Source: Solirubrobacterales bacterium
GTDB lineage: Bacteria > Actinomycetota > Thermoleophilia > Solirubrobacterales > 70-9
Assembly (NCBI GenBank): GCA_023958085.1
Contig: JAMLGI010000001.1
Location: 310,001 to 374,000 of the forward strand
Direction of reading: 5' to 3'
DNA: 64,000 bases
Position 1 is the first letter of the stretch, and every line of letters starts with the position of its first letter. Positions 20,086-39,210 of this stretch are shown here, piece after piece. Below the pieces are notes generated by a model. That model saw nothing but the letters and a program-made list of their open reading frames with translations, was not told the origin of the DNA and made no database searches. The position numbers and the translations under genes were made by a program.

Positions 20086-20162
20086 GCGAGGCAGGTTATC
20101 GGCGGCGGCGGGCGGCTCAAACCCCGTCGGCCGGAGCCGAGTCCGTACAATCGGGACCGCCC

Positions 20163-20250
20163 GGAGAGGTGGCCGAGTGGCTGAAGGCGCTTCCCTGCTA
20201 AGGAAGTATGCGGCAACCCCGCATCGAGGGTTCGAATCCCTCCCTCTCCG
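20163..20250 (+). tRNA. tRNA-Ser (GCU)
   Basis: The acceptor stem GGAGAGG/CCTCTCC plus discriminator G is perfect. The anticodon arm CTTCCCTGCTAAGGAAG holds anticodon GCT. A long variable arm (TATGCGGCAACCCCGCATC) and the T-arm GAGGG-TTCGAAT-CCCTC identify a class II serine tRNA of 88 nt. CCA is not encoded. Confidence 0.96.
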
Positions 20251-20335
20251 TTTCCCGCCGTCGCGGCCCGGCCAGCCGTCACGGCGATCCGGAGCCGCCT
20301 TTGCGGACCGGGGCGTCGGTCGTCATGATGGGGTC

Positions 20336-21769: not shown

Positions 21770-21799
21770 CCGATCGGCCCGGAGGAAGTCTCGGGCCGA

Positions 21800-21829
21800 T
21801 ATACTGAACTCGGTTCAGGTGAGTGAACC
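21800..21829 (+). promoter_or_regulatory. -10 box overlapped by three-half-site operator (IclR type) before the aldehyde dehydrogenase
   Basis: TATACT (21800-21805) is followed without a gap by TGAAC-TCG-GTTCA-GGTGAG-TGAACC. TGAAC/GTTCA (21805-21817) form one inverted repeat; GGTTCA/TGAACC (21812-21829) form a second that shares the middle half-site. The same layout recurs at 24260-24288. The iclR gene between the two sites is the probable regulator, and binding here would block the -10 region. Confidence 0.72.
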
Positions 21830-21861
21830 ATCCTCCACACGAGCAGAGAGGCAGCACCGCG

Positions 21862-23265
21862 ATGAAGACGATCGAGATCAGGAACCCCGAGGAGTCGGAC
21901 GTGCTCGGGGAGATCACCCTGACCGATCCCGATGCCGTAGCCGAGATCGTCGGCCGGGCGGTCGCCGCGAAGCGGTCCTGGTCGGCGCTGCCGGTTGCCG
22001 AAAGGGCCGCTGCTCTGGACCGGGCCGCGGACATCCTTGAAGCCGAGCAGTCCGAACTCGGACGGCTCCTGGCAGCCGAGTCGGGGAAGCCACTTCCCCA
22101 GGCCGAGTTCGAGGTCGGTGGCGGCATCCACTTCCTCCGGGGCAACGCGATCGAGGGCCGTCGTCTGGCCGGACGGGTGCTTCCGACCGAGGGAAACTTC
22201 GGGACCGAGTGGGATCTCGCCTACACCCGCCGCGAACCACTCGGGGTGGTCGCCGCGATCCTGCCCTTCAACTTCCCGGTTGAACTCTTTGTCGAGAAGT
22301 GCGCGGCGGCCCTGGTCGGCGGCAACGCGGTCGTGGTCAAGCCGCCGCTGGAAGATCCGCTGGTGGTCGAGAGGTTCAGACAGGCGCTGGTCGAGGCCGG
22401 GGTGCCGGCCGAGGTGATCCAGGCGGTCCACGGCGACGCCGACGTGGGTGCGGCCCTGGCGACTGCCCCGGGGGTGGACGCGATCTCCCTGACCGGCTCG
22501 ACCAACGCGGGGATCGCGGTGGCCGTGTCCACCGCGGCGCAACTCCGCGTGCTCCACCTCGAACTCGGCGGGAACAACGCCTGCCTGATCCTCGATGATG
22601 CCGACATCGACCTGGTCGCCGAGGAAGCGGTCCGGGGCCGGATCCTGATGAACGGCCAGGCCTGCTCGGCCTCCAAGCGCCTGATCGTCCACCGTTCGCT
22701 CCACGACGAACTGGCCGACCGGCTGGCGGCGGCTGCCGCCTCACAGACGGTGGGGGCGGCGACCGACGCCAGCTCGACCATCGGACCCCTGATCCACACC
22801 GGAGCCGCCTCACGGGTTGCCGACCAGGTGGCCAAGGCCCGGAGCCAAGGGGCCCTGCTGGCGGCCGGCAGCGGCGAGGCGGACGGCGCCTGGTTCGCCC
22901 CGACGGTGCTTGCCGGGGTGCCGACCGGGGCCGACATCGCCCGCGACGACGAGATCTTCGGTCCGGTCTTCAACCTGATCCCGGTCGATTCCGAACGGGA
23001 GGCCCTGGAAACGGCCAACGCCTCCTCATTCGGCCTGATGGCCTCGGTCTTCTCGACCGATCCCCAGCGGGCACTCGGGGTCGCGGAGCGGATCGACTCG
23101 GGCGGAGTGGTGATCAACGGCACCGATAACTACCGGCCACCGGTGATCCCGTTCGGCGGGGTGAAGATGTCCGGGCGGGGCCGTGAAGGTCTCGGCTACA
23201 CCCTCGACGAGCTGACCCGGGAGAAGCCGATCATCTTCCGCCGATTCCGATACCGGCCCGAGTAG
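21862..23265 (+). CDS. NAD(P)-dependent aldehyde dehydrogenase
   Basis: The 467-residue enzyme oxidises an aldehyde to the acid. Visible blocks are PFNFPVELF and VVVKPP (cofactor lysine), SLTGSTNAG (Rossmann loop), LELGGNNACLIL (general-base Glu) and MNGQACSASKRL (nucleophile Cys). It looks closest to succinate-semialdehyde/benzaldehyde dehydrogenase-like proteins, but the substrate is open. The ATG at 21862 is preferred because GAGAGG lies upstream; an in-frame GTG at 21823 falls inside the operator. iclR follows after 11 nt. The shared operator links this gene to the downstream 12-gene cluster, where it could oxidise an aldehyde intermediate. Confidence 0.9.
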   Translation: MKTIEIRNPEESDVLGEITLTDPDAVAEIVGRAVAAKRSWSALPVAERAAALDRAADILEAEQSELGRLLAAESGKPLPQAEFEVGGGIHFLRGNAIEGRRLAGRVLPTEGNFGTEWDLAYTRREPLGVVAAILPFNFPVELFVEKCAAALVGGNAVVVKPPLEDPLVVERFRQALVEAGVPAEVIQAVHGDADVGAALATAPGVDAISLTGSTNAGIAVAVSTAAQLRVLHLELGGNNACLILDDADIDLVAEEAVRGRILMNGQACSASKRLIVHRSLHDELADRLAAAAASQTVGAATDASSTIGPLIHTGAASRVADQVAKARSQGALLAAGSGEADGAWFAPTVLAGVPTGADIARDDEIFGPVFNLIPVDSEREALETANASSFGLMASVFSTDPQRALGVAERIDSGGVVINGTDNYRPPVIPFGGVKMSGRGREGLGYTLDELTREKPIIFRRFRYRPE

Positions 23266-23276
23266 GCTCACCCCCG

Positions 23277-24068
23277 GTGGCGGACGGATCCGACAGATAT
23301 CAGGTCCCCGCGGTGGTCGGGGCGATCAAGATTCTGGACGAACTCGCCGGTCGGGGCGACGAAGGAGCCACCCAGGCCGGCCTGGTTGAAGCGACCGGGC
23401 TCTCGAAGAGCACGATGCACAACCTGCTCTCGACCCTCGAGGCCCACGACTTCGTCCGGCGTGAAACGGACACCCGAAGCTACCGGCTCGGACCCGCCCT
23501 GATCCCGCTCGGCGCCGAGGCGGGCCGTCAGGTGAAGCTGGTTCGTACCGCGATCGACCGGATCGCCCCGCTGGCTGCGAGTGAGCAACTCTCGTTCGCG
23601 GTGGCCCAGATGATCGGGCGCGACCGTTGCCGGGTGATCGAACGGTTCTATCCGCCGGAAGACGTTCACGTCGGGATCACCGTGGGCTCGGACTACGGTC
23701 CCCTCGACGGAGCGATCGGCAAGGTGATCCTGGCGGCGATGGACCCGGCCCGGGCCGATCGGCTGATTCACGATCACGAGCTGCCAGCTCACACCAACTC
23801 GACGATCACGGATCCCGATCGTCTGGCCGCGGAAGTGGACCAGGCCCGGGAGCTGGGCTGGGCGGTGAGCCGGGGCGAGCTGAACCAGAACCACGCGGTC
23901 GCCGCCGGGATCCACGGCCCCGACGGCGAGCTTGCCCTGCTGCTGCTTGCGATCGGGTTCCCCGGGGATCTCGACGACGCAAAGATGGCCGAGACCGGCC
24001 GTCGGCTGAGCGAGACTGCCGCCGAGATCTCCGTGGTCCCGGTCCGCAGGTCATCGGCAAGTAGCTGA
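23277..24068 (+). CDS. IclR-family transcriptional regulator
   Basis: The 263-residue protein has the N-terminal IclR winged helix (VPAVVGAIKILDEL; GLVEATGLSKSTMHNLLSTLEAHDFVRRE) and the C-terminal ligand-binding domain (VGSDYGPLDGAIGKVILAAM, GWAVSRGELNQNHAVAAGIHG). IclR members sense small catabolites and usually repress or activate adjacent catabolic genes. It lies between two promoters that share an identical operator layout, so it probably controls both its own aldehyde dehydrogenase operon and the hydrolase-transport cluster. The GTG start is 11 nt after the dehydrogenase stop. Confidence 0.92.
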   Translation: MADGSDRYQVPAVVGAIKILDELAGRGDEGATQAGLVEATGLSKSTMHNLLSTLEAHDFVRRETDTRSYRLGPALIPLGAEAGRQVKLVRTAIDRIAPLAASEQLSFAVAQMIGRDRCRVIERFYPPEDVHVGITVGSDYGPLDGAIGKVILAAMDPARADRLIHDHELPAHTNSTITDPDRLAAEVDQARELGWAVSRGELNQNHAVAAGIHGPDGELALLLLAIGFPGDLDDAKMAETGRRLSETAAEISVVPVRRSSASS

Positions 24069-24402
24069 GTGCGGCCGGAAAACGCCGAACCGCGCGACCT
24101 CGAGCGGCCGATTTTCCCCGACCCGGCCCATGCCCGGGCTGCTCCTTCCGGCCGCCACCGGTCGAACTCGCAATCGCATCAGGCCGGCCCGGGGCGAGGT
24201 CGTCGACCGGCCCCCGTGGGTCGGGTTGCACGTAGCGGCCGGTCGTGTTAGCTTTTCGGTATCTTGAACAGCGTTCAGGTGGCTGAACTTGACTCAATCA
24301 GGTCCAGCCGATGCGAGCAAGCGCAAAGCGAGCGGTGAGTGAGTAACCGAGGCAGCCTGCGTCAGGCAAGCACAGGTACCCGGAAACCCACAGGAGGAAG
24401 AG
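24069..24402 (+). other. Non-coding interval holding the promoter and leader of the catabolic cluster
   Basis: No convincing gene was found here. The first ~170 bp (24069-24240) are GC-rich with no recognisable feature. A -10 box plus operator sits at 24260-24288. The remaining ~115 nt would form the 5' untranslated leader, with possible hairpins CGGT/ACCG (24333-24336 with 24346-24349) and GCCTG-CGT-CAGGC (24355-24367). A strong ribosome-binding site (AGGAGGAAGAG, about 24391-24401) precedes the first gene. Confidence 0.6.
24260..24288 (+). promoter_or_regulatory. -10 box overlapped by three-half-site operator (IclR type) before the 12-gene cluster
   Basis: TATCTT (24260-24265) runs into TGAAC-AGC-GTTCA-GGTGGC-TGAAC (24265-24288). 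The half-sites, both spacers and the overlap of the last T of the -10 box with the first half-site match the element at 21800-21829; GTTCAGGTG is identical in both. This is strong evidence for co-regulation of the two operons. Confidence 0.72.
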
Positions 24403-25959
24403 ATGAGTGAAGTTCGAGAGGTAGATCTGGTCATTACCGGCGGGACGGTTGTCTCCCCGAGCGGCACCCGCAAGATGGGGGTAGCGGTCGACGACGGCAA
24501 GATCGTCGCGGTGACCGAGGACCGGTTCCTGCCGCCGGCGAAGAAGACGGTTGACGCGAACGGACTTCACGTGATTCCGGGCCTGGTCGACACCGAGGCC
24601 CATCCCGGTTGCTACTCGCCGCTGAAGGACGACCTGATGAGTGAATCCCAGGCGGCCGCCGCGGCCGGGGTCACCACCTGGGGAATCCACGCCCCGTCCA
24701 CCCGGATGGGCCACCCCGAGTTCGCCGAGTTCGTACAGAAGGAAGACGTGGTCTCCTTCCATGACTCCTTCCCGTACTTCGAGGAGGCGGTCGAGTCCGA
24801 CTCCGCGATCGATGTCTTCGCCACCTACATGCTGGAAACCGACCAGCAGGCGGCCGAGATCCCCGAGTACGCCAAGGACCACGGCGTCACCTCCTTCAAG
24901 CTTTACCTCCAGGCGATGAGCCCCGAGTCCGAACCCAACTGGCCCGGCCGCCGCGCCGGTCTCGGCGCCGGATTCGACGACGGCGTGATCTGGGTGGCGA
25001 TGGAGAACGTGGCCGCCCTGGGCCGCCCCGGCATCGTCTGCATGCACTGCGAGAACTGGGAGGTCGCCCGGATCTTCGACAAGCGCCTCAAGGATCAGGG
25101 CCGGACCGACTGGGCCACCTGGTCGGACCGCTCGCCCCACTATCTCGAGTCCTCCCACATCCGCTGGTACGGGGACATGGCCGCCCATCTCGGTTGCCCG
25201 ATCTACATCCAGCACTCCACCACCCCGGAGAGCTACAAGGAGATCCTCGAACTGCGCGGTCGCGGGGTCGAGTGTCACGCCCAGACCGGGCCGCACTGGC
25301 TCCACTTCGGCAAGGAGGAGCACAACGCCTGGCGGATCAACGTGCCGCTCCGCTCCCGCCACAACAACCCGAACATCTGGTCGGCGATCCAGGCCGGGAT
25401 CATCAACTCGGTCGGCTCCGATCACGTGGTCGCCTGGGGTGACGCCGGCTACGAAGCCTCCTACAACGAGAACATCTGGGAGCTCAAGACCGGCTTCACC
25501 TCACGGGTCGAGATGCTGCTCCCGGTGCTTCTGAACGGCGTAAACCAAGGCAAGATCAGCCTCGAACGGATGGTCGAGGTGGCCTGCTCCGAACCGGCGA
25601 AGATCTTCGGGGTCTACCCGCAGAAGGGTCTGATCGAGGTCGGCGCCGACGCCGACATCGTTCTGGTCGACCTCGACAAGGAGGTCACCGTCAAGAACGA
25701 AAACGTGCTGACCCGCTCCGGCTGGACCTGCATCATGGATCACACCCTCAAGGGCTGGGCGGTCGGCACCTTCCTCCGCGGCACCCAGGTCGCCCGGTGG
25801 GAAGATGGCGCGCCGAAGCCGGAGTACATCGGCAACTCCGAGGGTCGGTACCTCAGACGGGAGCCGGGTCAGGATCTGCTTCCGGTCGCCGGTGGCAGCG
25901 GTGTCCGGGCCGAGGTTCGCCCGGAAGTGAAGATCGGTCCCAACGACGAGGGTGCCTGA
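24403..25959 (+). CDS. Dihydropyrimidinase/hydantoinase-like amidohydrolase
   Basis: The 518-residue protein has the cyclic-amidohydrolase fold: a beta-sandwich start (VDLVITGGTVVSPSG), then the TIM barrel. Candidate metal ligands are the carboxylated Lys166 in SFKLYLQ, His215 in CMHCENWE, His271 in YIQHSTTPES and Asp340 in NSVGSDH. The usual HxH is DTEAH here, so Glu65 replaces the first His and only His67 remains. Relatives hydrolyse cyclic amides such as dihydropyrimidines, hydantoins and allantoin. The substrate is probably a ring amide but may differ because of the altered metal site. It is the first gene of the cluster, with a strong ribosome-binding site. Confidence 0.85.
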   Translation: MSEVREVDLVITGGTVVSPSGTRKMGVAVDDGKIVAVTEDRFLPPAKKTVDANGLHVIPGLVDTEAHPGCYSPLKDDLMSESQAAAAAGVTTWGIHAPSTRMGHPEFAEFVQKEDVVSFHDSFPYFEEAVESDSAIDVFATYMLETDQQAAEIPEYAKDHGVTSFKLYLQAMSPESEPNWPGRRAGLGAGFDDGVIWVAMENVAALGRPGIVCMHCENWEVARIFDKRLKDQGRTDWATWSDRSPHYLESSHIRWYGDMAAHLGCPIYIQHSTTPESYKEILELRGRGVECHAQTGPHWLHFGKEEHNAWRINVPLRSRHNNPNIWSAIQAGIINSVGSDHVVAWGDAGYEASYNENIWELKTGFTSRVEMLLPVLLNGVNQGKISLERMVEVACSEPAKIFGVYPQKGLIEVGADADIVLVDLDKEVTVKNENVLTRSGWTCIMDHTLKGWAVGTFLRGTQVARWEDGAPKPEYIGNSEGRYLRREPGQDLLPVAGGSGVRAEVRPEVKIGPNDEGA

Positions 25960-25987
25960 GCGGCACCCCGGGAAAGGAGATCCGACC

Positions 25988-26746
25988 ATGGCAAACGTAT
26001 GGGATGACGTCCTCCCCGAGGAGGACCGGCAGGTATTCGAACAGGCCGGCTGGGGCAGGGACGTCGGCTTCGGCGAGAAGCCGGTCCTGCTGGTTGTGGA
26101 CGTGATCTACAACTTCGTCGGCGACAGGCCCGAACCGATCCTCGAGTCGATCAAGAAGTGGCGCTACTCCTGTGGCGAACGGGGCTGGGAGGGCGTCAAA
26201 CACCTCGAACGGCTGATCGCAGTCGCCCGCGAGAAGCAGATCCCGATCGTCTACACCGGCATGGACCGGCGACCCGACGGCTTCGACCAGGGCGCCTGGA
26301 ACTGGAAGAGCCACCGGGCCGGTGACGCCTCCGACATCAAGGGCTCGCTCGGCAACGAGGTGGTCGAGGAAGTCAAGCCGGAGCCACAGGACATCTACTT
26401 CGTCAAGGACAAGCCGAGCGCCTTTCACGGCACCCACCTGCTCGACTACCTGATCTACCTCGGGGCGGACACGGTGATCACCACCGGCACCACCACCTCC
26501 GGCTGCGTCCGGGCGAGCGCGGTCGACGCGACCCAGTACAACTACCGCTCGATTGTGCCCGAGGAGTGCGTCTGGGACCGCTCGATGATCTCCCACAAGG
26601 TCAATCTGCTGGACATCCAGATGAAGTACGGCGACGTGAAGAAGACCGATCAGGTGATCGAGTACTTTCGTTCGCTGCCGGACCGTCCCTGCGGCCCGAA
26701 CACGCCGACCGGCGTGGCCAACACCGACCAGGAGGTGCCCGCATGA
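25988..26746 (+). CDS. Isochorismatase-like cysteine hydrolase (N-carbamoylsarcosine amidase-like)
   Basis: The 252-residue protein has the Asp-Lys-Cys triad of this superfamily: Asp38 in LLVVDVIYNF, Lys140 or Lys142 in YFVKDKPSAF, and Cys173 in TTTSGCVRASAVDA. Relatives include N-carbamoylsarcosine amidohydrolase, nicotinamidase and ureidoacrylate amidase, which hydrolyse C-N bonds of carbamoyl or amide groups. Placed after a hydantoinase-like gene, it could cleave the N-carbamoyl or amide product of ring opening. AAAGGAG lies just upstream of the ATG at 25988. It overlaps the next gene by 4 nt. Confidence 0.85.
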   Translation: MANVWDDVLPEEDRQVFEQAGWGRDVGFGEKPVLLVVDVIYNFVGDRPEPILESIKKWRYSCGERGWEGVKHLERLIAVAREKQIPIVYTGMDRRPDGFDQGAWNWKSHRAGDASDIKGSLGNEVVEEVKPEPQDIYFVKDKPSAFHGTHLLDYLIYLGADTVITTGTTTSGCVRASAVDATQYNYRSIVPEECVWDRSMISHKVNLLDIQMKYGDVKKTDQVIEYFRSLPDRPCGPNTPTGVANTDQEVPA

Positions 26747-27336
26747 GCAGCGATTCCCACGGCGACCAACTCGGCCTCGGGGTCGAGGTCCGCAAGATCG
26801 TCACCCTCGTCGAGGAGGTCCACACCGAGGGGGGACGCTCCGACGGCACCCCGCTGAAGAAGGCGGCGGTGGCGGTGGTCTTCCGGAACCCCTACGCCGG
26901 CGAGCCCTTTACCGAGGATCTCTCGGCCCTGATCGACGCCTCCCCGGCGCTCGGCAGGCTGATCGGCGAACGGGTGAACGAGGCGCTCGACGGCGAAGTC
27001 GAGTCACACGGCAAGGCCGTGGTGGTCGGCACGGACGGAGAACAGGAACACGGTAACGCGGCCAAGACCACCGCTTTCGGCAACCCCTTCCGTGAGGGGT
27101 TCGGCGGCGGCAAGGCCTGGCTCCCCTCGACCACCAAGCGCTGCGCTCCGGGGGCCAGCGTGGACGTTCCGCTCTGCTACAAGGACGAGATCTGGATCCG
27201 CTCCCACTACGACACGATCACGATCCAGGTCGCCGACGCGCCGGCCGCTGACGAGATCATGCTGATCGGGGCGGTTGCCTCCCGCGGTCGCCTCAACGCC
27301 CGGGTCGGCGGCAAGACCAAGGACGAGGTCGCGTAG
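26743..27336 (+). CDS. AA_synth (DUF1185) family protein
   Basis: The 197-residue protein resembles the amino-acid-synthesis family (Pfam AA_synth, PF06684), whose biochemical role is not settled. Typical parts are the start VRKIVTLVEEVHTEGG, AVAVVFRNPYAG, the central HGNAAKTTAFGNPFREGFGGG, and a C-terminal part ending MLIGAVASRGRLNARVGG. The family often neighbours amidohydrolases and amidases, as here. It overlaps the cysteine hydrolase by ATGA, so the two are probably made in fixed ratio. A role in substrate handling or a subsidiary hydrolytic step is inference. Confidence 0.72.
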   Translation: MSSDSHGDQLGLGVEVRKIVTLVEEVHTEGGRSDGTPLKKAAVAVVFRNPYAGEPFTEDLSALIDASPALGRLIGERVNEALDGEVESHGKAVVVGTDGEQEHGNAAKTTAFGNPFREGFGGGKAWLPSTTKRCAPGASVDVPLCYKDEIWIRSHYDTITIQVADAPAADEIMLIGAVASRGRLNARVGGKTKDEVA

Positions 27337-27364
27337 GGCCGATGCCGGGGCGGGAGGACAGACA

Positions 27365-28516
27365 GTGAGTTCCACACTCGAGGTCCGCAACCTCGGTGGC
27401 ATGGTCACCGGTCGGCTGGACGACCCGGTGGCCACCCCCGAGGTGATCCGGGTGGAGGACGGCCTGATCACCTCCTTCGAGCCCGGACCGGAACCGGACC
27501 GGGTCCTGGATGCTCACGGGGCGGTCGCAGCCCCGGGCCTGATCGACTCCCACGCGCACGTCGTCTTCGGCGACTGGACCCCTCGCCAGAGCGCCCTCGG
27601 CTGGATCGAGTCCTCACTCCACGGCGGGGTGACGATGATGATGTCCGCCTCCGAGGTCCACCTTCCCGGTCGCCCTCACGACCGGGAAGGTGTGAAGTCC
27701 CTGGCGATCGCCGCCCAGCGGGCATTCGCCGACTACCGGCCCGGCGGGGTCAAGGTGCTGGCCGGCTCGGTGATCATGGAGCCGTCCCTCACCCCGGAGG
27801 ACTTCGTCGAGCTCAGGGAGAAGGGCGTCTCCCTGGCCAAAGTGGGGTTCGGCGACTTTTCGCCCCAGGCCGATGCCGCCCCGCTGGTCCGGGCCGCCCA
27901 GGAAAACGGTTTCGTGGTGATGAATCACACCGGCGGGGCCTCGATCCCCGACTCCTCTCCGGTCACGATCGAGGACGTGCTCGCGCTCGGCTGCGACATC
28001 ATCGGCCACGCCAACGGCGGCACAACCGCCCTGCCGGATGCCGATCTGCCTCGCCTGTTCGATGCTCCCGGTGCGATTCAGCTGGTCCAGGCGGGTAACC
28101 TGAGATCCTCGATCGCGATCATGGATCACGCCTACGATCTCGACTCGCTCGACCGGATCGTGCTTGCCACCGATACCCCCACCGGCACCGGAGTCATGCC
28201 CCTCGGGATGATCAAGACGGTCTGCGAAATCTCCTCGCTCTGCGGACTCGCCGCGCCCAAGGCGCTGGCCCTGGCCACCGGTAACAACGCCGCGGTGTTG
28301 GGTCGGCCGGAGGGCATTCTGGAGCCCGGCCATCCGGCCGACCTCTTTCTGATGTTCCGTCCGCTCGGCTCGTCCTGCGACGGCCCGCTCGAATCGATCG
28401 AGAACGGAGACATCCCCGGGATCGCGGCGGTCATCGCCGACGGCGAGCTCCGGGCGCTGCGCTCAAGAAATACACCTGCCCCCGACGGGGCCTGCGAACT
28501 CAAAGGAGAGGCATGA
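27365..28516 (+). CDS. Amidohydrolase, enamidase-like
   Basis: The 383-residue amidohydrolase-superfamily enzyme starts with a short beta-sandwich and the full metal block GLIDSHAHVVFGD. Later metal-site candidates are a Lys in LAKVGFGDF, His in MNHTGG, His in IIGHANGG and Asp in LATDTPTG. The layout is closest to the enamidase/imidazolonepropionase-like group; enamidase of nicotinate-fermenting Eubacterium hydrolyses a cyclic enamide and releases ammonia. The GTG at 27365 follows a GGGAGGA ribosome-binding site. It is the second of three amidohydrolases in the cluster and overlaps DUF1989 by 4 nt. Confidence 0.8.
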   Translation: MSSTLEVRNLGGMVTGRLDDPVATPEVIRVEDGLITSFEPGPEPDRVLDAHGAVAAPGLIDSHAHVVFGDWTPRQSALGWIESSLHGGVTMMMSASEVHLPGRPHDREGVKSLAIAAQRAFADYRPGGVKVLAGSVIMEPSLTPEDFVELREKGVSLAKVGFGDFSPQADAAPLVRAAQENGFVVMNHTGGASIPDSSPVTIEDVLALGCDIIGHANGGTTALPDADLPRLFDAPGAIQLVQAGNLRSSIAIMDHAYDLDSLDRIVLATDTPTGTGVMPLGMIKTVCEISSLCGLAAPKALALATGNNAAVLGRPEGILEPGHPADLFLMFRPLGSSCDGPLESIENGDIPGIAAVIADGELRALRSRNTPAPDGACELKGEA

Positions 28517-29112
28517 CCGAGCTGATCGAAGAGGTGATCGTTCCCGCCAGCGAGGCGCGGACGATCGAGGTGAAGAAGGGTCAGACCCTCGAGATGGTCG
28601 ACCTGGAGGGCCAGCAGGTGGGCGACGTCGCGATCTGGATGGCCGCCGACCCGACCGAGTACTTCTCGCCCAGCCACACCGTCTCGACCCTGTCAAAGCT
28701 GGTTCCGGAGGTGGGCGACTCGATCCTCTCCAATCACCGCACCCCGATGATGAAGATCACCCGGGACGACGTCGGCCGTCACGACCTGATCGTCCCCTGC
28801 TGCGATCCCGAGCGCTACTCGATCGACTACGACACCCCGGGCCACCGCTCCTGCCTGGGCTCGCTCGAGGAAGCGATCGAGGGCCGGGACCTTCCCCTCC
28901 GGGGCGAGATGTGCTGGAACGTGTTCATGAACAACCAGCTTGAGGACGGCAGGATCGTCACCTACGAACCGCCGCATCCGGCCGGATCGACGATCGCCCT
29001 GGAGGCCCTGGAGGACGTGACCGTGGCCCTCTCCGCCTGTCCCCAGGACATCTCGGCAGTGAATGCCTACAACCCGACCCCGATGGCACTTCGGGTCAGG
29101 AGCGGCGACTGA
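28513..29112 (+). CDS. DUF1989 (urea carboxylase-associated / carboxyguanidine deiminase-like) protein
   Basis: The 199-residue protein fits the DUF1989 family. The N-terminal barrel includes VKKGQTLEMVDLEGQQVGD; SPSHT and CCDPERY blocks follow, with MCWNVFMNNQLEDGR and HPAGSTIALEALEDVTVALSACPQD at the C-terminal end. Characterised members (CgdAB) deiminate carboxyguanidine; others are only known as urea-carboxylase neighbours. No urea or guanidine carboxylase gene is present here, so a deiminase role on another amidine or amide intermediate is possible but unproven. It overlaps its neighbours at both ends. Confidence 0.78.
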   Translation: MTELIEEVIVPASEARTIEVKKGQTLEMVDLEGQQVGDVAIWMAADPTEYFSPSHTVSTLSKLVPEVGDSILSNHRTPMMKITRDDVGRHDLIVPCCDPERYSIDYDTPGHRSCLGSLEEAIEGRDLPLRGEMCWNVFMNNQLEDGRIVTYEPPHPAGSTIALEALEDVTVALSACPQDISAVNAYNPTPMALRVRSGD

Positions 29113-29771
29113 CTGGATACGCGACAGACGAGCTGGCGGTCGCCGAGGCCGCACGGATCATCGCCGGGGCCGGTCTGGTCGAGGCCTTCGGGCACGTCTC
29201 GGCGCGCTCCGGGGACGGCTTCCTGATCACCGCGACCCGGCCGCTCGGCAGCGCCACCGCCGCCGACATCCAGCGGGTGGACAGCGAGGGAATCCCGGCT
29301 GAGGACGCGGTCGACCTGCCACTCGAGGCGCCGCTGCACGCCGCCGTCTACGCGGCCCGTCCCGACATCGGGGCGATCTGCCGCACCCACTCCCCGGCGG
29401 CGGTGCGGGCCGGGGCGCGGGCCGAAGTGCCACCGCTCACCCACGGTCTCGGCGGGCTTTCCGGCGAGATCCGGCTCTGCGAACGGATCGATCTGGTTAC
29501 CGATGCCGGGGCAGGCAGGGAGATCGCGGTCGCACTCGGCGGCGCTGACTGTCTGCTGATCCGGGCCAACGGTGCGATCGCCACCGGGGCCGACCTCGCC
29601 GGAGCGGTGGTCCGGGCCCGCTACCTCGAGGAACGATGCGAGCTCTCGGCCGACGCGCCGGACGGGGCCGCTATCGGAACCCGTGAACTTGAATCCCGCT
29701 CCGTCTGGTTTGACCAGGAAAGAGCCCGTGCCTGGGCCTGGATGAGGTGGAGGTACGGGAAGGCGTCCTGA
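29109..29771 (+). CDS. Class II aldolase/adducin-like protein, degenerate metal site, apparent CTG start
   Basis: The frame encodes an aldolase II domain beginning DELAVAEAARIIAGAG and GHVSAR. No ATG, GTG or TTG precedes these blocks in frame; the first is a GTG at 29277, deep inside the domain. CTG at 29109 overlaps the DUF1989 stop as CTGA, mirroring the ATGA couplings elsewhere in the operon, and gives 220 residues. Compared with fuculose-phosphate aldolase, Glu73 and His94 are kept, but His92 is Arg (ICRTHS) and the third ligand His is Asn154 (RANG). Zinc binding is therefore doubtful; a non-aldolase, regulatory or altered catalytic role is likely. Confidence 0.7.
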   Translation: MTGYATDELAVAEAARIIAGAGLVEAFGHVSARSGDGFLITATRPLGSATAADIQRVDSEGIPAEDAVDLPLEAPLHAAVYAARPDIGAICRTHSPAAVRAGARAEVPPLTHGLGGLSGEIRLCERIDLVTDAGAGREIAVALGGADCLLIRANGAIATGADLAGAVVRARYLEERCELSADAPDGAAIGTRELESRSVWFDQERARAWAWMRWRYGKAS

Positions 29772-29826
29772 TCTAACGAGTCAACTCAAGGCAGTATCGG
29801 TTCAATTAATGAGGAGAGAGGTACAA

Positions 29827-30864
29827 ATGAGTTTCACGCAACACCGCAAGCGTTTTCTGGCAGCACTGCTGGCTTCCATGGTCTTGGTGGCCGGTCTGGC
29901 CGCATGTGGCGGCAGCAGCGACGATTCCGGCTCCGGTGATACCGGATCCACCCAGGACGCGACTCTGGTTCTGGACTTCATCCCGGGTGCCGTCCACGCC
30001 GGGATCTACGAAGCCCAGAAGGCCGGTTACTACAAGGACAACGGAATCAACCTGAAGATCATCGAGCCGACCTCGACCGCCGACACGCTCAAGCTGATCG
30101 ACGCCGGCAAGGCCGACTTCGGTCTGGCCGACGGCATCGATCTCGCCTCGCAGATCGAGCAGGGCCGTGAGGCAAAGGGGATCATGGCGATGCTTCAGCG
30201 TCCCCCCGGTGGTCTGATCACCCTGAAGAAGGACAACATCGCAACCCCGGCCGATCTGGCGGGCAAAACGGTTGGCGTTACCGGCGTTCCGTCGGACAAC
30301 GCGATCCTGGACACGATCATGGCTGACGCGGGCGCCAGTTCCGACGACGCCAAGGTCGTGACCATCGGGTTCAACGGCGTGCAGGCGCTTGAGTCCGGCA
30401 AGGTCCAGGCGTTCACCGGTTTCATTCCGGCAGACGCGGTCCAGGTCGAGGCCGACGGCCAGCCGACCAAGTCGTTCAGCCTGGACGAGAACGGGGGCCC
30501 CTCCTACCCGGGTCTCGTCGCCTTCTCGACCGAGTCCCGGATCAAGGACAAGCCGGACCTGATGAAGGGCTTCGTCGAAGCCACGATCAAGGGTTACCAG
30601 GATGCGCTGGAAGATCCGGCCAAGGCGATCGACGACCTGATCTCGCAGACCCAGGGGATCGACAAGGAACTGGCGACCAAGTCGTTCGAGCAGTGGGTGC
30701 CGCTGATGGGCCCGGCTGATACCTACGGCCAGTTCGACCAGAAGAACCTCGAGTCGCTGTCGTCCTTCCTCGTGGAGAACGAACTCGCCAAGGAGCCGAT
30801 CGCTCCGGATCGTTACGCGACCAACGAGTTCACCGGTGGCGCCGAGCTGACCGCCGGCAAGTAG
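29827..30864 (+). CDS. ABC transporter substrate-binding lipoprotein (NMT1/SsuA type)
   Basis: The 345-residue precursor has a basic N-terminus, a hydrophobic signal and lipobox VLVAGLAACGG, so it is a lipid-anchored binding protein. The mature part starts with an acidic Ser/Gly linker, then LVLDFIPGAVHAGIYEAQKAGYYKDNGINLKI, the pattern of NMT1/THI5-like proteins that bind pyrimidine precursors, riboflavin, sulfonates or other small ligands. GKADFGLADGIDLA and LAGKTVGVTG are further family blocks. It begins the importer section of the cluster. The ATG at 29827 follows GAGGAGAGAGG. The likely ligand is the substrate of the cluster's hydrolases. Confidence 0.88.
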   Translation: MSFTQHRKRFLAALLASMVLVAGLAACGGSSDDSGSGDTGSTQDATLVLDFIPGAVHAGIYEAQKAGYYKDNGINLKIIEPTSTADTLKLIDAGKADFGLADGIDLASQIEQGREAKGIMAMLQRPPGGLITLKKDNIATPADLAGKTVGVTGVPSDNAILDTIMADAGASSDDAKVVTIGFNGVQALESGKVQAFTGFIPADAVQVEADGQPTKSFSLDENGGPSYPGLVAFSTESRIKDKPDLMKGFVEATIKGYQDALEDPAKAIDDLISQTQGIDKELATKSFEQWVPLMGPADTYGQFDQKNLESLSSFLVENELAKEPIAPDRYATNEFTGGAELTAGK

Positions 30865-30900
30865 GCGAAGCGGGACGCAGAAGAAAGGATCGGCATACAG

Positions 30901-31719
30901 GTGGCTTCGAAGCTCACAATCGAGGGTCTCTCCAAGATCTATCGCGGCACCGGCGGCGCCGAGAACGTGACCGCCCTGAAGGACGTCGCAATCGAGATCG
31001 GGGACGGGGAGTTCGTTTCGATCGTCGGGCCTTCGGGCTGCGGCAAGTCGACCCTGTTCAACATCATCGCCGGGCTGATCCGGCCGTCGAGCGGCACCGT
31101 GCTGCTCGACGGTCGGCAGCGCGACGACCTGCTCGGCTCGGTCGGCTACATGCCGCAACGGGACTGCCTGATGCCCTGGCGGTCGGTCCTCGAGAACACC
31201 ACGCTCGGGCTTGAACTGACCGGCGTGAAACGGAAGGAAGCCAGGCAGCAGGCTCTGGCCGAGTTCGCCCGGTTCGGGCTGGCCGGCTTCGAGGATCAGT
31301 GGCCGGCCAAGCTTTCGGGCGGGATGAAGCAGCGTGCGGCGCTGCTTCGCACCTTCCTGGCCGGCCGGGATCTGATGCTTCTGGACGAACCGTTCGGAGC
31401 GCTGGACGCCCTGACCCGCGCCAACATGCAGCAGTGGCTCCTGGATGTCTGGAGCCAGAACCGCAAGACCATCCTCTTCGTCACCCATGACGTCGAGGAG
31501 GCAATCTTTCTCTCCGACCGGGTGTATGTGATGTCCGGCCGGCCCGGCCGGGTCTCGCTCTGCGTGGACGTGAAGATCGAGCGTCCGCGCCGACCCGAGA
31601 TCTCGATGTCCCCCGAGTTCCTGCTGCTCAAGCAGAAGCTGCTCAGGCCGCTCGAGATGGCGGCAGCACCCGATGGCAGTTTCCCGGTCGACCGTCCCAC
31701 CGTGGAGGAGAACCTCTGA
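30901..31719 (+). CDS. ABC transporter ATP-binding protein (nitrate/sulfonate/pyrimidine type)
   Basis: The 272-residue ATPase has Walker A GPSGCGKST, Q-loop YMPQRDCLMPW, signature LSGGMKQRAALLR, Walker B LMLLDEPFGALD and switch His in FVTHDVEEA. The C-terminal ~60 residues follow the SsuB/TauB pattern. It energises import with the binding protein upstream and the permease downstream. It starts with GTG 36 nt after the binding protein and shares one nucleotide with the permease start (TGATG). Confidence 0.93.
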   Translation: MASKLTIEGLSKIYRGTGGAENVTALKDVAIEIGDGEFVSIVGPSGCGKSTLFNIIAGLIRPSSGTVLLDGRQRDDLLGSVGYMPQRDCLMPWRSVLENTTLGLELTGVKRKEARQQALAEFARFGLAGFEDQWPAKLSGGMKQRAALLRTFLAGRDLMLLDEPFGALDALTRANMQQWLLDVWSQNRKTILFVTHDVEEAIFLSDRVYVMSGRPGRVSLCVDVKIERPRRPEISMSPEFLLLKQKLLRPLEMAAAPDGSFPVDRPTVEENL

Positions 31720-32543
31720 TGTTTGCCCGTGGTACCCGCAGCCGGCGGCTCGCCGGCGCCATCCTCCCACCCCTCCTGTTCGCGATCGCCGTGCTGGTCG
31801 TCTGGCAGCTCTACGTGGTGATCGGTGGGGTCAAGGAATCGACCCTGCCCAAGCCGACCGACATCATCGACTCGATGTGGCAGAACCGCACGATGCTGAT
31901 CGAGAACGCCTGGGTCACGATCAAGGAGATCATCCTCGGCTTCATCGCCGCGATCATCCTCGGGGTCGGCCTGGCGGTCCTGATCCGCAGTTCACGCAAG
32001 GTGGAACGGGCGATCTACCCCTGGCTGGTGGTGTCCCAGATGGTGCCGATCCCGGCGATCGCTCCGCTGCTGGTGATCTGGACCGGCTTCGACATGAGGC
32101 CGAAGGTGCTGGTGATCATGCTGGTCAGCTTCTTCCCGATCGCGGTCAACACGATCGACGGGCTGAGAGCGGTCGAGCCGGAACTGATGAACCTGCTGAA
32201 GACGCTCCGGGCGAACGCCTGGCAGCGCTTCCGCAAGGCCCAGCTTCCGGCAGCTCTGCCCTTCATGTTCTCCGGCCTCAAGGTGGCGGCCGCCCTTTCA
32301 GTGATCGGAGCGGTCTTCGCCGAATGGGTCGGGGCTTCCGACGGTCTCGGATACCTGGTGCTCGTTCTCAACAACCAGACCGCGACCACCGACATGTTTG
32401 CGGTGATCGTCACCCTGGCCCTGATCGGGATCAGCCTCTTCCTCCTGGTGACCCTGCTTGAGCGCCTGCTCCTGCCCTGGTACTACGAGTCCCGGGAGTC
32501 GGAAGGCGAGGGGCTTCACATCGATCCGGACGACCCGAGCTGA
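31719..32543 (+). CDS. ABC transporter permease
   Basis: The 274-residue membrane protein has about six hydrophobic segments. The cytoplasmic coupling block is LKTLRANAWQRFRKAQLPAALPFMFSGL, the EAA-like motif of SsuC/TauC-type permeases. It ends in an acidic soluble tail. With the binding protein and the ATPase it makes a complete high-affinity importer inside the catabolic cluster; only one permease gene is present, so it should act as a homodimer. Confidence 0.92.
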   Translation: MFARGTRSRRLAGAILPPLLFAIAVLVVWQLYVVIGGVKESTLPKPTDIIDSMWQNRTMLIENAWVTIKEIILGFIAAIILGVGLAVLIRSSRKVERAIYPWLVVSQMVPIPAIAPLLVIWTGFDMRPKVLVIMLVSFFPIAVNTIDGLRAVEPELMNLLKTLRANAWQRFRKAQLPAALPFMFSGLKVAAALSVIGAVFAEWVGASDGLGYLVLVLNNQTATTDMFAVIVTLALIGISLFLLVTLLERLLLPWYYESRESEGEGLHIDPDDPS

Positions 32544-32571
32544 GCGCCCGGACAGCCGGCGGAAAGCTGAA

Positions 32572-34008
32572 ATGAACGAACGAGGCAACAGGGACACGGC
32601 GGGCGATGGGTCGGCCAAGGGCGCTGCGACGACGATCGTCCGGGGCGCCTGGGTGCTGACCATGGGACCGGCCGGGGCGCTTCGCGATGCGGCGGTTGCC
32701 TTCGACGGCGACGGCCGGATCATCGCGACCGGCCGGGCGGACGAGCTGATCGCCACCAACCCCGGGGCGGAGCTGGTCGGCGACGGCAACGGCATCGTGA
32801 TGCCGGGCTTCGTCAACGCCCACACCCACCTGACCGAGGGTCTGATCACCGGCATGGGTGAGACCGCCGTGCTCTGGGAGTGGTTCACCCGGGTGGTCAA
32901 TCCGTCGGGCGAAATCATCACCCGGGAACAGGTCGGGCTCGGCACCCGTCTCAAGGCGGTCGAGATGCTGGAGTCGGGGATCACCACGGTCAACGACATG
33001 TCCTGCCACCGCAATCTCGGTTCGCTGGCCTCGCTCGGCGCGGTTGACGGCCTCGCCGAGATGGGCCTGCGGGGGATCGTCTGCTTCGGCGCGGAGGATC
33101 TCTACGACAACGCGCCTTCCGCCGATCTGTTCATGGCGGAGCATGAGGCGCTGGCCGACCGGATCGCCCCGGAACCACTGATCGGCTTCCGGGCCGGGGT
33201 CGGAACCGTGCTCGGGATCTCGGACGAACTGTTCACTCGAACGATCGCGGCCTGCGCCGAACACGGCTGGGCGGTACACACCCATCTGGCCGAGGTTCGC
33301 GAGGAGGTGACCGAGTCCAAGCTGACCAACGACGGCTGCGACACGATCGAGCACGCCGACCGTAAGGGTTTGCTGGACCACGAGGTGATCGCCGGCCACT
33401 GCATCTGGTGCTCCGAGAACGACATCGGCCTGCTCGCCTCCCGGGATGTGGCGGTTGCCCACAACCCGGTTGCGAACATGATCCTCGCCTCCGGGGTCTG
33501 CCCGGTGCCGCGACTGCGCCGGGAGGGCGTACGGATCGGGATCGGCACCGACGGGGCCGCCTCGAACGACTCCCAGGACATGTTCGGCGCGATCAAAACG
33601 GCCGCCCTGCTGCAGAAAGTTCACAAGCTGGAAGCCACCGCGATGACCGCCCCCGAGGTACTGGAGATGGCGACGATCGGTGGTGCCCGGGCACTCGGTC
33701 TCGAAGACGAGATCGGTTCGCTCGAACCGGGAAAGCGGGCCGATCTGGTCCTGCTCGATGGCAACGGACCGGAGCTGGCGGTCCTCCACGATCCGTTCCA
33801 GCAGATCGTGTACGGCGCTACGCCACGCAGCGTCTCCGAGGTCTGGGTCGATGGCGTCCACCGGGTGACCGGTGCGGCGACGATCGGCATCGACCGCACG
33901 GCACTGGCCGCCGAGGCCCGGGAGAACGCCCGGGACCTGGCGAATCGTGGCGCCATGAAGGGCGAGTCGGCCTACGCCGGCCCGCTCCCATTCGAAGAAG
34001 GGAAGTAG
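32572..34008 (+). CDS. Amidohydrolase/deaminase of the TrzA / SAH-MTA deaminase group
   Basis: The 478-residue protein is an amidohydrolase with an intact mononuclear metal site: HxH in NAHTHLTEG, His and Glu in HTHLAEVREE, His in GHCIWCSE and Asp in GTDGAASNDSQDMF. The last block is diagnostic of the triazine/nucleoside/guanine deaminase and chlorohydrolase group. It probably removes an exocyclic amino or similar group from a heteroaromatic ring. It follows the importer genes by 28 nt, so it may carry out an early step on the imported compound. The ATG at 32572 was chosen; the longer frame overlaps the permease. Confidence 0.87.
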   Translation: MNERGNRDTAGDGSAKGAATTIVRGAWVLTMGPAGALRDAAVAFDGDGRIIATGRADELIATNPGAELVGDGNGIVMPGFVNAHTHLTEGLITGMGETAVLWEWFTRVVNPSGEIITREQVGLGTRLKAVEMLESGITTVNDMSCHRNLGSLASLGAVDGLAEMGLRGIVCFGAEDLYDNAPSADLFMAEHEALADRIAPEPLIGFRAGVGTVLGISDELFTRTIAACAEHGWAVHTHLAEVREEVTESKLTNDGCDTIEHADRKGLLDHEVIAGHCIWCSENDIGLLASRDVAVAHNPVANMILASGVCPVPRLRREGVRIGIGTDGAASNDSQDMFGAIKTAALLQKVHKLEATAMTAPEVLEMATIGGARALGLEDEIGSLEPGKRADLVLLDGNGPELAVLHDPFQQIVYGATPRSVSEVWVDGVHRVTGAATIGIDRTALAAEARENARDLANRGAMKGESAYAGPLPFEEGK

Positions 34009-34011
34009 ACG

Positions 34012-35646
34012 ATGGCTGACACCAGCGACATCGTTGTGATCGGGGCCGGCCACAACGGCCTCGCCTGTGCCTCATACCTGGCCCGGGCCGGACTCTCGGT
34101 GACCGTGCTCGAATCCTCCGACACCCCGGGCGGCTGCATCTTTACCCAGGATCAGCCCTCCGGCAACCGGCTGGAACTGGGTGGCTACGAACATGGCGGA
34201 ATCCGGGCTTCGGGGGTGACCGCCGACCTCGAACTCGAGTCCCGCTACGGGCTGAAGTTCCACGAGCGGGAAGAGATCCTCTTCGCCCCCTGCGACGACG
34301 GCACCCCGCTCGCCTTCTGGAACTCGCTGGAGCGCACCGTGGAAAGCCTGGCCGAAACGGTCGGCCGTGAGGAGGCGGAGCGCTACCGGGCCTTCTCCAA
34401 CTGGTCCTCGGCCGCGATGAATGTGCTCGGCCAGGCCGAGTCCGGTCCTCCGCCGAGCATCCGTTCGCTGGCCGCGGTCGCTGATGCCACCCTCGGCTCG
34501 GAGGGTTCCCGGCTGATGCAGGCCCTGTTCGCCCCGGCGACCGCGATCGCTGAAGCGGCCTTCGAGGACGACCGGCTGCGCGGCCCGCTGAATCACTGGG
34601 CGGCCCACTCCCAGCAACCGCCGCAGGCGCCGGGCACCGGGGCGGGAGCGCTGTTTCTCGCCGCCTCGCACGGCGCTCCGGCGATCCGGCCGGCCGGTGG
34701 TTCCCGGGGCACGGTAGACGCCCTGGTCCGCTGCCTCGAAGACTCGGGTGGCAGCGTGATCTGCTCGGCTGCGGCCGAACGGGTTGAGCTGTTCGGCGGC
34801 CGCGCCCGGGCGGTGATCGCCGGGGGCGAGCGCTACGAGGCCCGCAAGGCGGTGATCTCGGCGATCGACGCCCGCCGACTCTTCCTCGGCCTGATGGACG
34901 AAAAGGAACTGCCGTCCTCGCTGGTCGCCGAGGTGAAGCGAATCCACTTCTCCCAGCACAACGTGGCCGAACTGAAGGTGGACGCGGTGATCGACCTGGT
35001 GCCGCACGTGAACGGACCGGACGGGATGGAGCGGGCCTTCATGCTCTCCGCCAACACCGGCACCGACATCGCCCGGGCCTTCAGCGCGATCGGGCTGGGG
35101 CAACTGCCGGAGCGGCCCCCGGTGATGATCGCTTTCCCCTCGGTGCTCGAGTCTGGCTGGGCGCCGGAGGGCCAGGGTGTGGTCTGGCTTTCGACCTTCG
35201 TGCCGTGGACCCCGGAGAACGGACCGTGGGACCGGAAGCTGCTTGAGGAAGCGTCGGACCTGACCTGGAAGACGGCCGAGAAGGCGCTCGGCTACGAGAT
35301 GACCGCGGTCGAAAGAAAGATCACCGGGCCGGAGGACTGGGTGGCCCGTCACGGCAACCCGGGCTCCAACCCGAACCACATCGAGATGAGCATCGACCAG
35401 CTGATGGGGATGCGCCCCTCGGTTTCCCTCTCCGGATACTCGACCCCGGTCCCCGGTCTCTTCCTGACCGGTGCCGGCACCCATCCGGGCGGCGGCATCA
35501 CCGGGGTTCCGGGCCGCAACTCGGCCGCTGTGGTGATGGAGCACCTCGGGATCACGAAGCGAGCCCGGATGAAGAAACTGCGCACCCAGGCGGCGATGCT
35601 GAAGGACGCGCTGAAGGCGACCAGAGAGTTGAGGAAGAACGCATGA
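34012..35646 (+). CDS. FAD-dependent oxidoreductase (phytoene desaturase/PYROXD2-like)
   Basis: The 544-residue flavoprotein begins with a Rossmann dinucleotide motif (IVVIGAGHNGLACASYLARAG) and a matching Glu (VLESSDTPGG). The C-terminal FAD block is PGLFLTGAGTHPGGGITGVPGRN. Overall this is the CrtI-like flavin amine oxidase group; many members are not carotenoid enzymes. No other carotenoid gene is near, so oxidation or desaturation of a ring or amine in the cluster's pathway is more likely. It starts 3 nt after the deaminase stop and overlaps the methyltransferase by ATGA. Confidence 0.82.
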   Translation: MADTSDIVVIGAGHNGLACASYLARAGLSVTVLESSDTPGGCIFTQDQPSGNRLELGGYEHGGIRASGVTADLELESRYGLKFHEREEILFAPCDDGTPLAFWNSLERTVESLAETVGREEAERYRAFSNWSSAAMNVLGQAESGPPPSIRSLAAVADATLGSEGSRLMQALFAPATAIAEAAFEDDRLRGPLNHWAAHSQQPPQAPGTGAGALFLAASHGAPAIRPAGGSRGTVDALVRCLEDSGGSVICSAAAERVELFGGRARAVIAGGERYEARKAVISAIDARRLFLGLMDEKELPSSLVAEVKRIHFSQHNVAELKVDAVIDLVPHVNGPDGMERAFMLSANTGTDIARAFSAIGLGQLPERPPVMIAFPSVLESGWAPEGQGVVWLSTFVPWTPENGPWDRKLLEEASDLTWKTAEKALGYEMTAVERKITGPEDWVARHGNPGSNPNHIEMSIDQLMGMRPSVSLSGYSTPVPGLFLTGAGTHPGGGITGVPGRNSAAVVMEHLGITKRARMKKLRTQAAMLKDALKATRELRKNA

Positions 35647-36653
35647 GCAGTCCGAACGAGCCGGTGGCGGCGTCCCCGTTTGCGGTGGTCGACCAGATCA
35701 CCGACTACCAGAAGTCCGCCCTGATCGGGACGGCGGTCGAGCTCGGCCTGCCGAACGAACTCCATGAAAAGACCGCCACCCTGGCGGAGCTGACCGGAGT
35801 GCTCGGCACCGACTCCCGCGGCACCATGGGTCTGCTCTCCGGCCTGGTCGAGTTCGGCCTGGTTGAACGGGACGGGGACCGGTTCGGTCTGACCGCGGCC
35901 GGGGCGATGCTGGCCGACGAGCATCCCGACACGGTCGCCTGGATCGCCCGCAAGGAGTGGTTCTTCTACAAGCTTTGGGCAGCCATGCCGGAGGCGGTCA
36001 GGACCGGCCACACCCAGACCGGCGCCTGGCGTGACCGGCTGGAAAACGATCCGGCCCAGGCCCACGACTTCCTGCGGGCACTGGACGACCTCTGCCGCCT
36101 CTACGGCGGCGGTCTGCCGGACCTTGCCGGACTCGAAAAGGGCGGCCGGCTGCTGGACATCGGCGGCGGCGCCGGTTCCCACTCGGCGAATCTGGTCAAG
36201 GCGGTCGACGGCCTCGAAGCAACCGTGCTCGACCTCCCCGGGGCCGAACCGGTGCTCAGGGAGCGACATCCCGAGATCGGCTTTGTCGCCGGGGATTTCG
36301 ACCTGCCGCGCTTCGGCCGGCCCGAGGGCGAGCTGTGGGATTACGTGCTCGTATCGAACATCCTGCACGACAACCCGGCCGAACGGAACGCCCGGATCAT
36401 CGCCGAGGCGGCTTCGCTGCTCGCCCCCGGCGGCAGCCTGGTGATCTACGAGTGGGTGATCGACGAGGGTCGCACCAGCCCGCCCGGCGTTGCCTCCTTC
36501 ACCCCGATGATGGTGATCGAGAACGAGGGCGGCTGGACCTGGACCGAGGCCGAGATCGGTGAGTGGATCGAGGCCGCCGGCCTCAGGGCCCGACCGATGA
36601 ATCGCGGCCAGGGCCCGATCGCCGCAATCCGCGCCGATCAACCCACCCCATAA
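35643..36653 (+). CDS. SAM-dependent O-methyltransferase (acetylserotonin-MT/COMT family)
   Basis: The 336-residue enzyme has an N-terminal winged-helix dimerisation domain (~residues 10-90) and a Rossmann SAM domain with LLDIGGGAGSHS (SAM loop), DLPGAEPV (acidic ribose contact) and LVSNILHDNPAERN (catalytic His region). Family members methylate hydroxyls of small aromatic or N-heterocyclic compounds. A methyltransferase at the end of a degradative operon is unusual: it could protect an intermediate, make a signal, or be part of an unknown biosynthetic branch. It is the last gene before a hairpin. Confidence 0.86.
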   Translation: MSSPNEPVAASPFAVVDQITDYQKSALIGTAVELGLPNELHEKTATLAELTGVLGTDSRGTMGLLSGLVEFGLVERDGDRFGLTAAGAMLADEHPDTVAWIARKEWFFYKLWAAMPEAVRTGHTQTGAWRDRLENDPAQAHDFLRALDDLCRLYGGGLPDLAGLEKGGRLLDIGGGAGSHSANLVKAVDGLEATVLDLPGAEPVLRERHPEIGFVAGDFDLPRFGRPEGELWDYVLVSNILHDNPAERNARIIAEAASLLAPGGSLVIYEWVIDEGRTSPPGVASFTPMMVIENEGGWTWTEAEIGEWIEAAGLRARPMNRGQGPIAAIRADQPTP

Positions 36654-39173: not shown

Positions 39174-39210
39174 GCGTCCCGTTATACAGCACCGGTGTAC
39201 TGTCTCTCCC

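What the first reader, a model, noticed from the sequence alone, without database searches (positions are those of the whole stretch)
21800..24288. Two promoters share an unusual three-half-site operator flanking an iclR gene
At 21800 and 24260 the same element occurs: a -10 box (TATACT or TATCTT) whose last T begins TGAAC-N3-GTTCA-N6-TGAAC. The half-sites, both spacers, the -10 overlap and GTTCAGGTG are conserved, while the linker bases TCG/AGC and AG/GC differ. That is direct evidence of selection rather than recent duplication. The iclR gene at 23277 lies between them. Three half-sites in alternating orientation would allow two overlapping dimer positions. It ties the aldehyde dehydrogenase to the 12-gene cluster as one regulon.
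Basis: partly seen in the sequence, partly recalled or inferred. Interest (0 to 1): 0.75.

Follow-up and report, generated by a model that had tools for sequence, protein, structure and literature searches.

The report
IclR tandem operator of a catabolic regulon
Two matching control sites beside a regulator gene probably switch an aldehyde dehydrogenase gene and a 12-gene breakdown cluster together in a group of actinobacteria; the sites are real and conserved, but they are of an already described type.

Summary
The element is real: TGAAC-N3-GTTCA-N6-TGAAC occurs exactly twice in the genome, at 21805 and 24265. It recurs before the same genes in relatives from genus to order, next to an iclR orthologue. 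The two copies share no flanking similarity, and this iclR is the only IclR_C gene in the 95%-complete genome. The regulon claim (ALDH-iclR plus the 12-gene hydantoinase-to-methyltransferase cluster) is well supported.

Two details need correction. First, the operator is not a three-half-site oddity. In 38 aligned sites a fourth, weaker half-site sits exactly where a second palindrome would put it (31/38 within one mismatch; next best offset 10/38). The full site is GTTC-N8-GAAC-N3-GTTC-N8-GAAC: two palindromes 19 bp apart, the geometry published for IclR tetramers (PMC8222616). Second, the "-10 box" at 24260 is probably the AT-rich centre of the first palindrome. The better promoter is TTGCAC-N17-TAGCTT, with its -10 at 24249-24254, so the operator covers the start site, as a repressor's would.

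Three-box and tandem-palindrome IclR sites are both published. New member of a known kind; binding untested.

The parts
21794..21828 (+). Operator O1 before ALDH-iclR: half-sites R0 GGCC (degraded) 21794-21797, R1 GAAC 21806-21809, R2 GTTC 21813-21816, R3 GAAC 21825-21828
   Evidence: Sequence; exact pattern match; conserved in orthologues
21800..21805 (+).
   Evidence: Promoter score 10.8 against a control median of 10.0
21862..23265 (+). Aldehyde dehydrogenase (467 aa, PF00171)
23277..24068 (+). IclR-family regulator (263 aa), 11 nt after ALDH and so probably co-transcribed with it and autoregulated; only IclR_C gene in the genome
24226..24231 (+). -35 element TTGCAC of the 12-gene cluster promoter (predicted)
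   Evidence: TTGCAC-N17-TAGCTT, score 14.0, above the 99% control (13.7); similar pairs in most relatives
24249..24254 (+). -10 element TAGCTT with TG extension (predicted); start site expected near 24261
24254..24288 (+). Operator O2 before the cluster: R0 TTTC (one mismatch) 24254-24257, R1 GAAC 24266-24269, R2 GTTC 24273-24276, R3 GAAC 24285-24288
24403..25959 (+). Hydantoinase/dihydropyrimidinase-like amidohydrolase, first gene of the cluster
25952..26746 (+). Isochorismatase-family amidase; nearest solved relative N-carbamoylsarcosine amidohydrolase
26566..27336 (+). AA_synth (PF06684) protein; the true start is probably later than the listed ORF start
27275..28516 (+). Amidohydrolase
28513..29112 (+). 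DUF1989 protein (urea-amidolyase-associated type)
29277..29771 (+). Class II aldolase/adducin-like protein
29809..30864 (+). NMT1-type substrate-binding protein
30901..31719 (+). ABC transporter ATPase
31719..32543 (+). ABC transporter permease
32458..34008 (+). Amidohydrolase (MTA/SAH deaminase, atrazine chlorohydrolase, 8-oxoguanine deaminase type)
34012..35646 (+). Flavin amine oxidase-like protein
35643..36653 (+). O-methyltransferase-like protein, last gene of the 12

Best explanation
The two elements are operators of the single IclR-family regulator encoded between them. Each operator is a tandem pair of palindromes (half-site GTTCAG, pattern GTTC-N8-GAAC) with centres 19 bp apart, giving four half-sites on about 35 bp: GTTC-N8-GAAC-N3-GTTC-N8-GAAC. 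Two IclR dimers (a tetramer) would bind cooperatively on one face of the DNA over the transcription start just downstream of the -10, blocking transcription of ALDH-iclR (autoregulation) and of the 12-gene hydantoinase/amidohydrolase/ABC-transporter cluster until a pathway metabolite releases the protein. Shown here: the sequence, its conservation, the fourth half-site, the link to this iclR, and the promoter position at the cluster (consensus scan only). Inferred: binding, tetramer, repression rather than activation, and the inducer.
For: Only two exact copies in the genome, and only one IclR_C gene in the genome, lying between them. Orthologous sites upstream of ALDH and of the hydantoinase operon in G001, 002, 007, 010-015 (two in each, plus a third before an inserted amidohydrolase/ABC module in G012 and G015), upstream of a second operon in G018, and upstream of iclR-hydantoinase or hydantoinase operons in other genera and another family. 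Half-sites invariant in the genus (R1 24/24, R2 24/24, R3 23/24) while linkers and flanks vary. R0 at exactly -11: 31/38 within one mismatch of GTYC against 10/38 at the next best of 63 offsets; outside the genus R0 is exactly GTTC in 8/14; one site has four perfect boxes (L065 9919). Spacing control: four-box pattern at <=2 mismatches 21 (genus) and 8 (outside) against a mean of 0.15 for 20 altered spacings. Recognition-helix region SKS(T/S)xHNLLxTLE conserved in orthologues. The published IclR consensus NGTYCRAW4TYGRACN and the tandem spacing of 18-22 nt fit. Cluster promoter TTGCAC-N17-TAGCTT and equivalents in relatives lie 14-24 nt upstream of the first half-site.
Against: No binding or expression data. 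R0 is poor in this window, above all at ALDH (GGCC), so in this species the tandem reading rests on relatives. Sites were gathered by scanning for R1-R3, which inflates the invariance of those boxes; three distant ALDH sites were found on the opposite strand, so their R0 was part of the search. Two of 15 genomes with the orthologue have no <=1-mismatch site (they have weaker ones). The genomes are related, so the p-values are not phylogenetically corrected. The ALDH promoter could not be located in this window.
Confidence: 0.85

Rival explanations
1. Three-box operator proper: a dimer can sit on R1-R2 (TGAAC-N3-GTTCA, group 2 spacing) or on R2-R3 (group 1 spacing), giving two alternative, mutually exclusive dimerization modes, as proposed by the reader and for 32 IclR groups by Suvorova and Gelfand.
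For: In this species only three half-sites are perfect; R0 is 0/24 exact GTTC in the genus whereas R1-R3 are nearly invariant. Published precedent: PcaU, PobR and HmgR three-box sites.
Against: A fourth box is detectable at the position predicted by a 19-bp tandem. In distant orthologues the weak box is often not R0 but R1 or R3, while R0 is exact. The N3 spacing of R1-R2 follows automatically from two N8 palindromes 19 bp apart.
Confidence: 0.2
2. The element is bound by IclR as an activator (as PcaU or PobR), not a repressor.
For: IclR-family members of either sign are known (PMC8222616).
Against: The operator lies just downstream of a strong, conserved -35/-10 pair at the cluster and covers the expected start site, where an activator is unlikely to work.
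Confidence: 0.15
3. The element is bound by another regulator and the iclR gene is merely a neighbour.
For: No binding data; short alternating repeats are recognised by many HTH families.
Against: The motif fits the published IclR consensus, tracks the presence of the iclR orthologue, and no other IclR_C gene exists in the genome.
Confidence: 0.04
4. Chance or recent duplication.
For: None.
Against: Expected 0.0006 exact matches per genome; flanks unrelated; conserved at orthologous positions across genera.
Confidence: 0.005

Closest known systems
Tandem palindromic IclR-family operators (94 orthologous groups, centres 18-22 nt apart; Suvorova and Gelfand 2021, PMC8222616)
   Same: Two group-1 palindromes (GTTC-N8-GAAC, the NGT-12-ACN subgroup) 19 bp apart; regulator adjacent and autoregulated
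   Different: One outer half-site degraded in this species; half-site GTTCAG rather than GTYCRA; regulon of a hydantoinase-type cluster
Three-box IclR-family operators (32 orthologous groups; PcaU, PobR, HmgR)
   Same: Three half-sites in alternating orientation, one pair at group 1 and one at group 2 spacing, exactly as in the window
   Different: Comparison reveals a fourth box here, so the three-box state looks derived
TtgV of Pseudomonas putida with its operator (PDB 2xro)
   Same: IclR-family protein with a solved DNA complex, taken as reference for tetramer binding in PMC8222616; hit by the IclR profile
   Different: Controls efflux pumps; only family-level sequence similarity
PcaR/PcaU/PobR and BhcR regulators (NCBIfam TIGR02431, NF045644)
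   Same: Nearest named NCBIfam models to this IclR
   Different: Scores 78 and 88 bits, far below their cut-offs of 285 and 350, so not members

Membership tests
IclR family (protein) | N-terminal IclR helix-turn-helix and C-terminal effector-binding domain | tested here: met
   PF09339 38.1 bits (cut-off 22), PF01614 66 bits (cut-off 24)
IclR tandem-palindrome operator | Two group-1 palindromes with centres 18-22 nt apart | tested here: met
   Met in the aligned family (19 nt; R0 31/38 within one mismatch); in the window itself R0 has one mismatch from GTYC at O2 (TTTC) and is degraded at O1 (GGCC)
IclR tandem-palindrome operator | Bound by the adjacent IclR protein as a tetramer | not testable with these tools
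   Needs purified protein
IclR three-box operator | Three boxes of alternating direction, one pair group 1, one pair group 2 | tested here: met
   R1-R2 spacing N3 between AAC and GTT, R2-R3 GTTC-N8-GAAC; exact in both copies, compared with consensus
IclR three-box operator | No fourth box; alternative dimerization | tested here: inconclusive
   A fourth box exists in relatives and weakly here; alternative dimerization needs footprints
PcaR/PcaU/PobR subfamily | NCBIfam TIGR02431 score above 284.75 bits | tested here: not met
   78.2 bits
sigma-70-type promoter with -10 at 24260 (TATCTT) | Acceptable -35 at 15-19 nt | tested here: not met
   The best pair in the region is TTGCAC-17-TAGCTT with -10 at 24249; TATCTT does not appear among the two best
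sigma-70-type promoter with -10 at 21800 (TATACT) | Acceptable -35 at 15-19 nt | tested here: inconclusive
   Best partner CGGCCC at 19 nt, score 10.8 against a control median of 10.0

The most novel reading that the evidence does not exclude
The published 'three-box' and 'tandem-palindrome' IclR operators are one and the same lattice: GTTC-N8-GAAC repeated every 19 bp automatically yields the group-2 N3 spacing between the inner boxes, and three-box sites are tandem sites that lost one outer box. The alternative-dimerization idea built on three-box sites would then be unnecessary. Here the decay of one box can be followed across genera.
Probability: 0.35. Interest if true: 0.45.

Novelty: new member of a known kind. 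Interest (0 to 1): 0.3.

Why it matters
It assigns a regulator, operator and regulon to an uncharacterised hydantoinase/amidohydrolase gene cluster of Solirubrobacterales, and gives a testable operator consensus. It also offers a comparative series in which a four-box operator decays to three boxes, which bears on whether IclR proteins really use two dimerization modes.

Tried and rejected
Chance and recent duplication: rejected. A wider regulon in this genome: three-box matches at 2 mismatches outside the locus (three places) and single palindromes at 1 mismatch (seven places outside) were not followed to their genes and are at a level I take as mostly chance. Matches in genomes without the orthologue (G006, G039, G044, G045, G047, and G011:C89) have no cluster nearby (one unrelated ABC match in L052) and were set aside as chance. 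Four-box scans at 3-4 mismatches are unusable: control spacings 8-2-8 and 8-5-8 give as many or more hits. A riboswitch in the leader: no Rfam match near threshold. A generic promoter/terminator scan found nothing beyond shuffles. Literature searches for an IclR regulator of a hydantoinase/isochorismatase cluster found nothing; the TtgV structure paper is not held.

Full report
Observation. The pattern TGAAC-N3-GTTCA-N6-TGAAC is present exactly at 21805-21828 and 24265-24288. These are the only exact copies in the genome; about 0.0006 would be expected by chance.

Surroundings. The first copy precedes an aldehyde dehydrogenase (21862-23265) followed 11 nt later by iclR (23277-24068). The second precedes 12 genes on the same strand (24403-36653): hydantoinase-like, isochorismatase-like, AA_synth, amidohydrolase, DUF1989, class II aldolase-like, substrate-binding protein, ABC ATPase, permease, a second amidohydrolase, flavin amine oxidase and O-methyltransferase. 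The nearest solved relatives are hydantoinases, N-carbamoylsarcosine amidohydrolase and MTA/SAH deaminase or atrazine chlorohydrolase. This suggests breakdown of a ring amide or hydantoin-type compound; the substrate is not known. Relatives with the orthologue are named Solirubrobacterales, Thermoleophilia or Actinomycetota/Actinomycetes MAGs.

Conservation. In 61 related genomes, <=1-mismatch copies occur in 13 of 15 genomes with an iclR orthologue and in 6 of 46 without (Fisher p about 3e-7, not corrected for relatedness). One of the six, G016, in fact carries a truncated iclR at a contig end. In nine further genomes of the genus the copies sit upstream of both ALDH and the hydantoinase gene. 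In G012 and G015 a module with another amidohydrolase and ABC transporters is inserted after iclR and has its own copy. In G018 a similar downstream module also has one. In other genera and another family, copies precede the hydantoinase, iclR or ALDH genes. In one such genome (L065) ALDH lies inside the cluster itself, independent support for the functional link. The window genome has a single IclR_C gene.

Anatomy. Aligning 38 sites in one frame gives R1 GAAC, R2 GTTC and R3 GAAC, invariant or nearly so in the genus. A fourth half-site R0 (GTYC) lies at positions -11 to -8: 31/38 within one mismatch, against 10/38 at the next best of 63 offsets. Outside the genus R0 is exactly GTTC in 8 of 14, and the weak box is then often R1 or R3. 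L065 has all four perfect. A spacing control gives 21 and 8 hits (genus, outside) at <=2 mismatches for spacing 8-3-8, against a mean of 0.15 for 20 other spacings. Palindrome centres are 19 bp apart. Caveats: sites were found with R1-R3; three distant ALDH sites entered through the opposite strand; at looser thresholds the controls are noisy.

Promoters. At the cluster the best promoter is TTGCAC-N17-TAGCTT (24226-24254), score 14.0 against a 99% control of 13.7, and comparable pairs are found in most relatives 14-24 nt upstream of R1. The operator then begins at the end of the -10 and covers the expected start (about 24261). At ALDH, TATACT has no -35, and most relatives lack TATA there. Several relatives instead share TAGGCT in the R2-R3 linker, in some of them 7-8 nt before the start codon, compatible with a leaderless transcript.

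Mechanism. Most likely a dimer of dimers of this IclR sits on each operator and represses ALDH-iclR and the cluster until an inducer releases it. Occupancy, sign and inducer are inferred, not shown.

Known context. The window site fits both, because two N8 palindromes 19 bp apart create the N3 group-2 spacing. The finding is a new member of a known kind. Its one fresh angle is that three-box sites may be decayed four-box sites.

Noticed in passing
L037 3859-3882, 13058-13081, 15456-15479; L038 3394-3417, 12622-12645, 15077-15100; L048 9572-9595: A third operator copy precedes an inserted amidohydrolase/ABC-transporter module in G012 and G015, and a similar downstream module in G018: the operator accompanies the modules, and the regulon is modular.
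   Followed up: partly
L036, L040-L044 leaders of the hydantoinase gene (e.g. L041 6270-6319): A conserved hairpin CTCCCGG-loop-CCGGGAG, loop variable, lies just upstream of the ribosome-binding site in six relatives; absent from the window's longer leader (114 nt).
   Followed up: partly
L037, L041, L043, L044, L045 operators before ALDH: Linker TAGGCT inside the operator, followed 7-8 nt later by the start codon, looks like a leaderless promoter; not so in the window.
   Followed up: partly
L046 3353-5521 (G005): Shortened cluster: only pieces of ALDH and of iclR remain next to the substrate-binding and ATPase genes, but the operator is kept.
   Followed up: no
window 26566-26746: The AA_synth ORF as listed overlaps the isochorismatase gene by 181 nt; the Pfam match starts at residue 75, so the start codon is probably further downstream.
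   Followed up: no
window 20084-21769: Pyruvate kinase gene (PF00224/PF02887) directly upstream of the ALDH operator; the neighbour is conserved in the genus but lies outside the regulon.
   Followed up: no
window 36756-39626 (-): Family 92 glycoside hydrolase gene facing the end of the 12-gene cluster.
   Followed up: no
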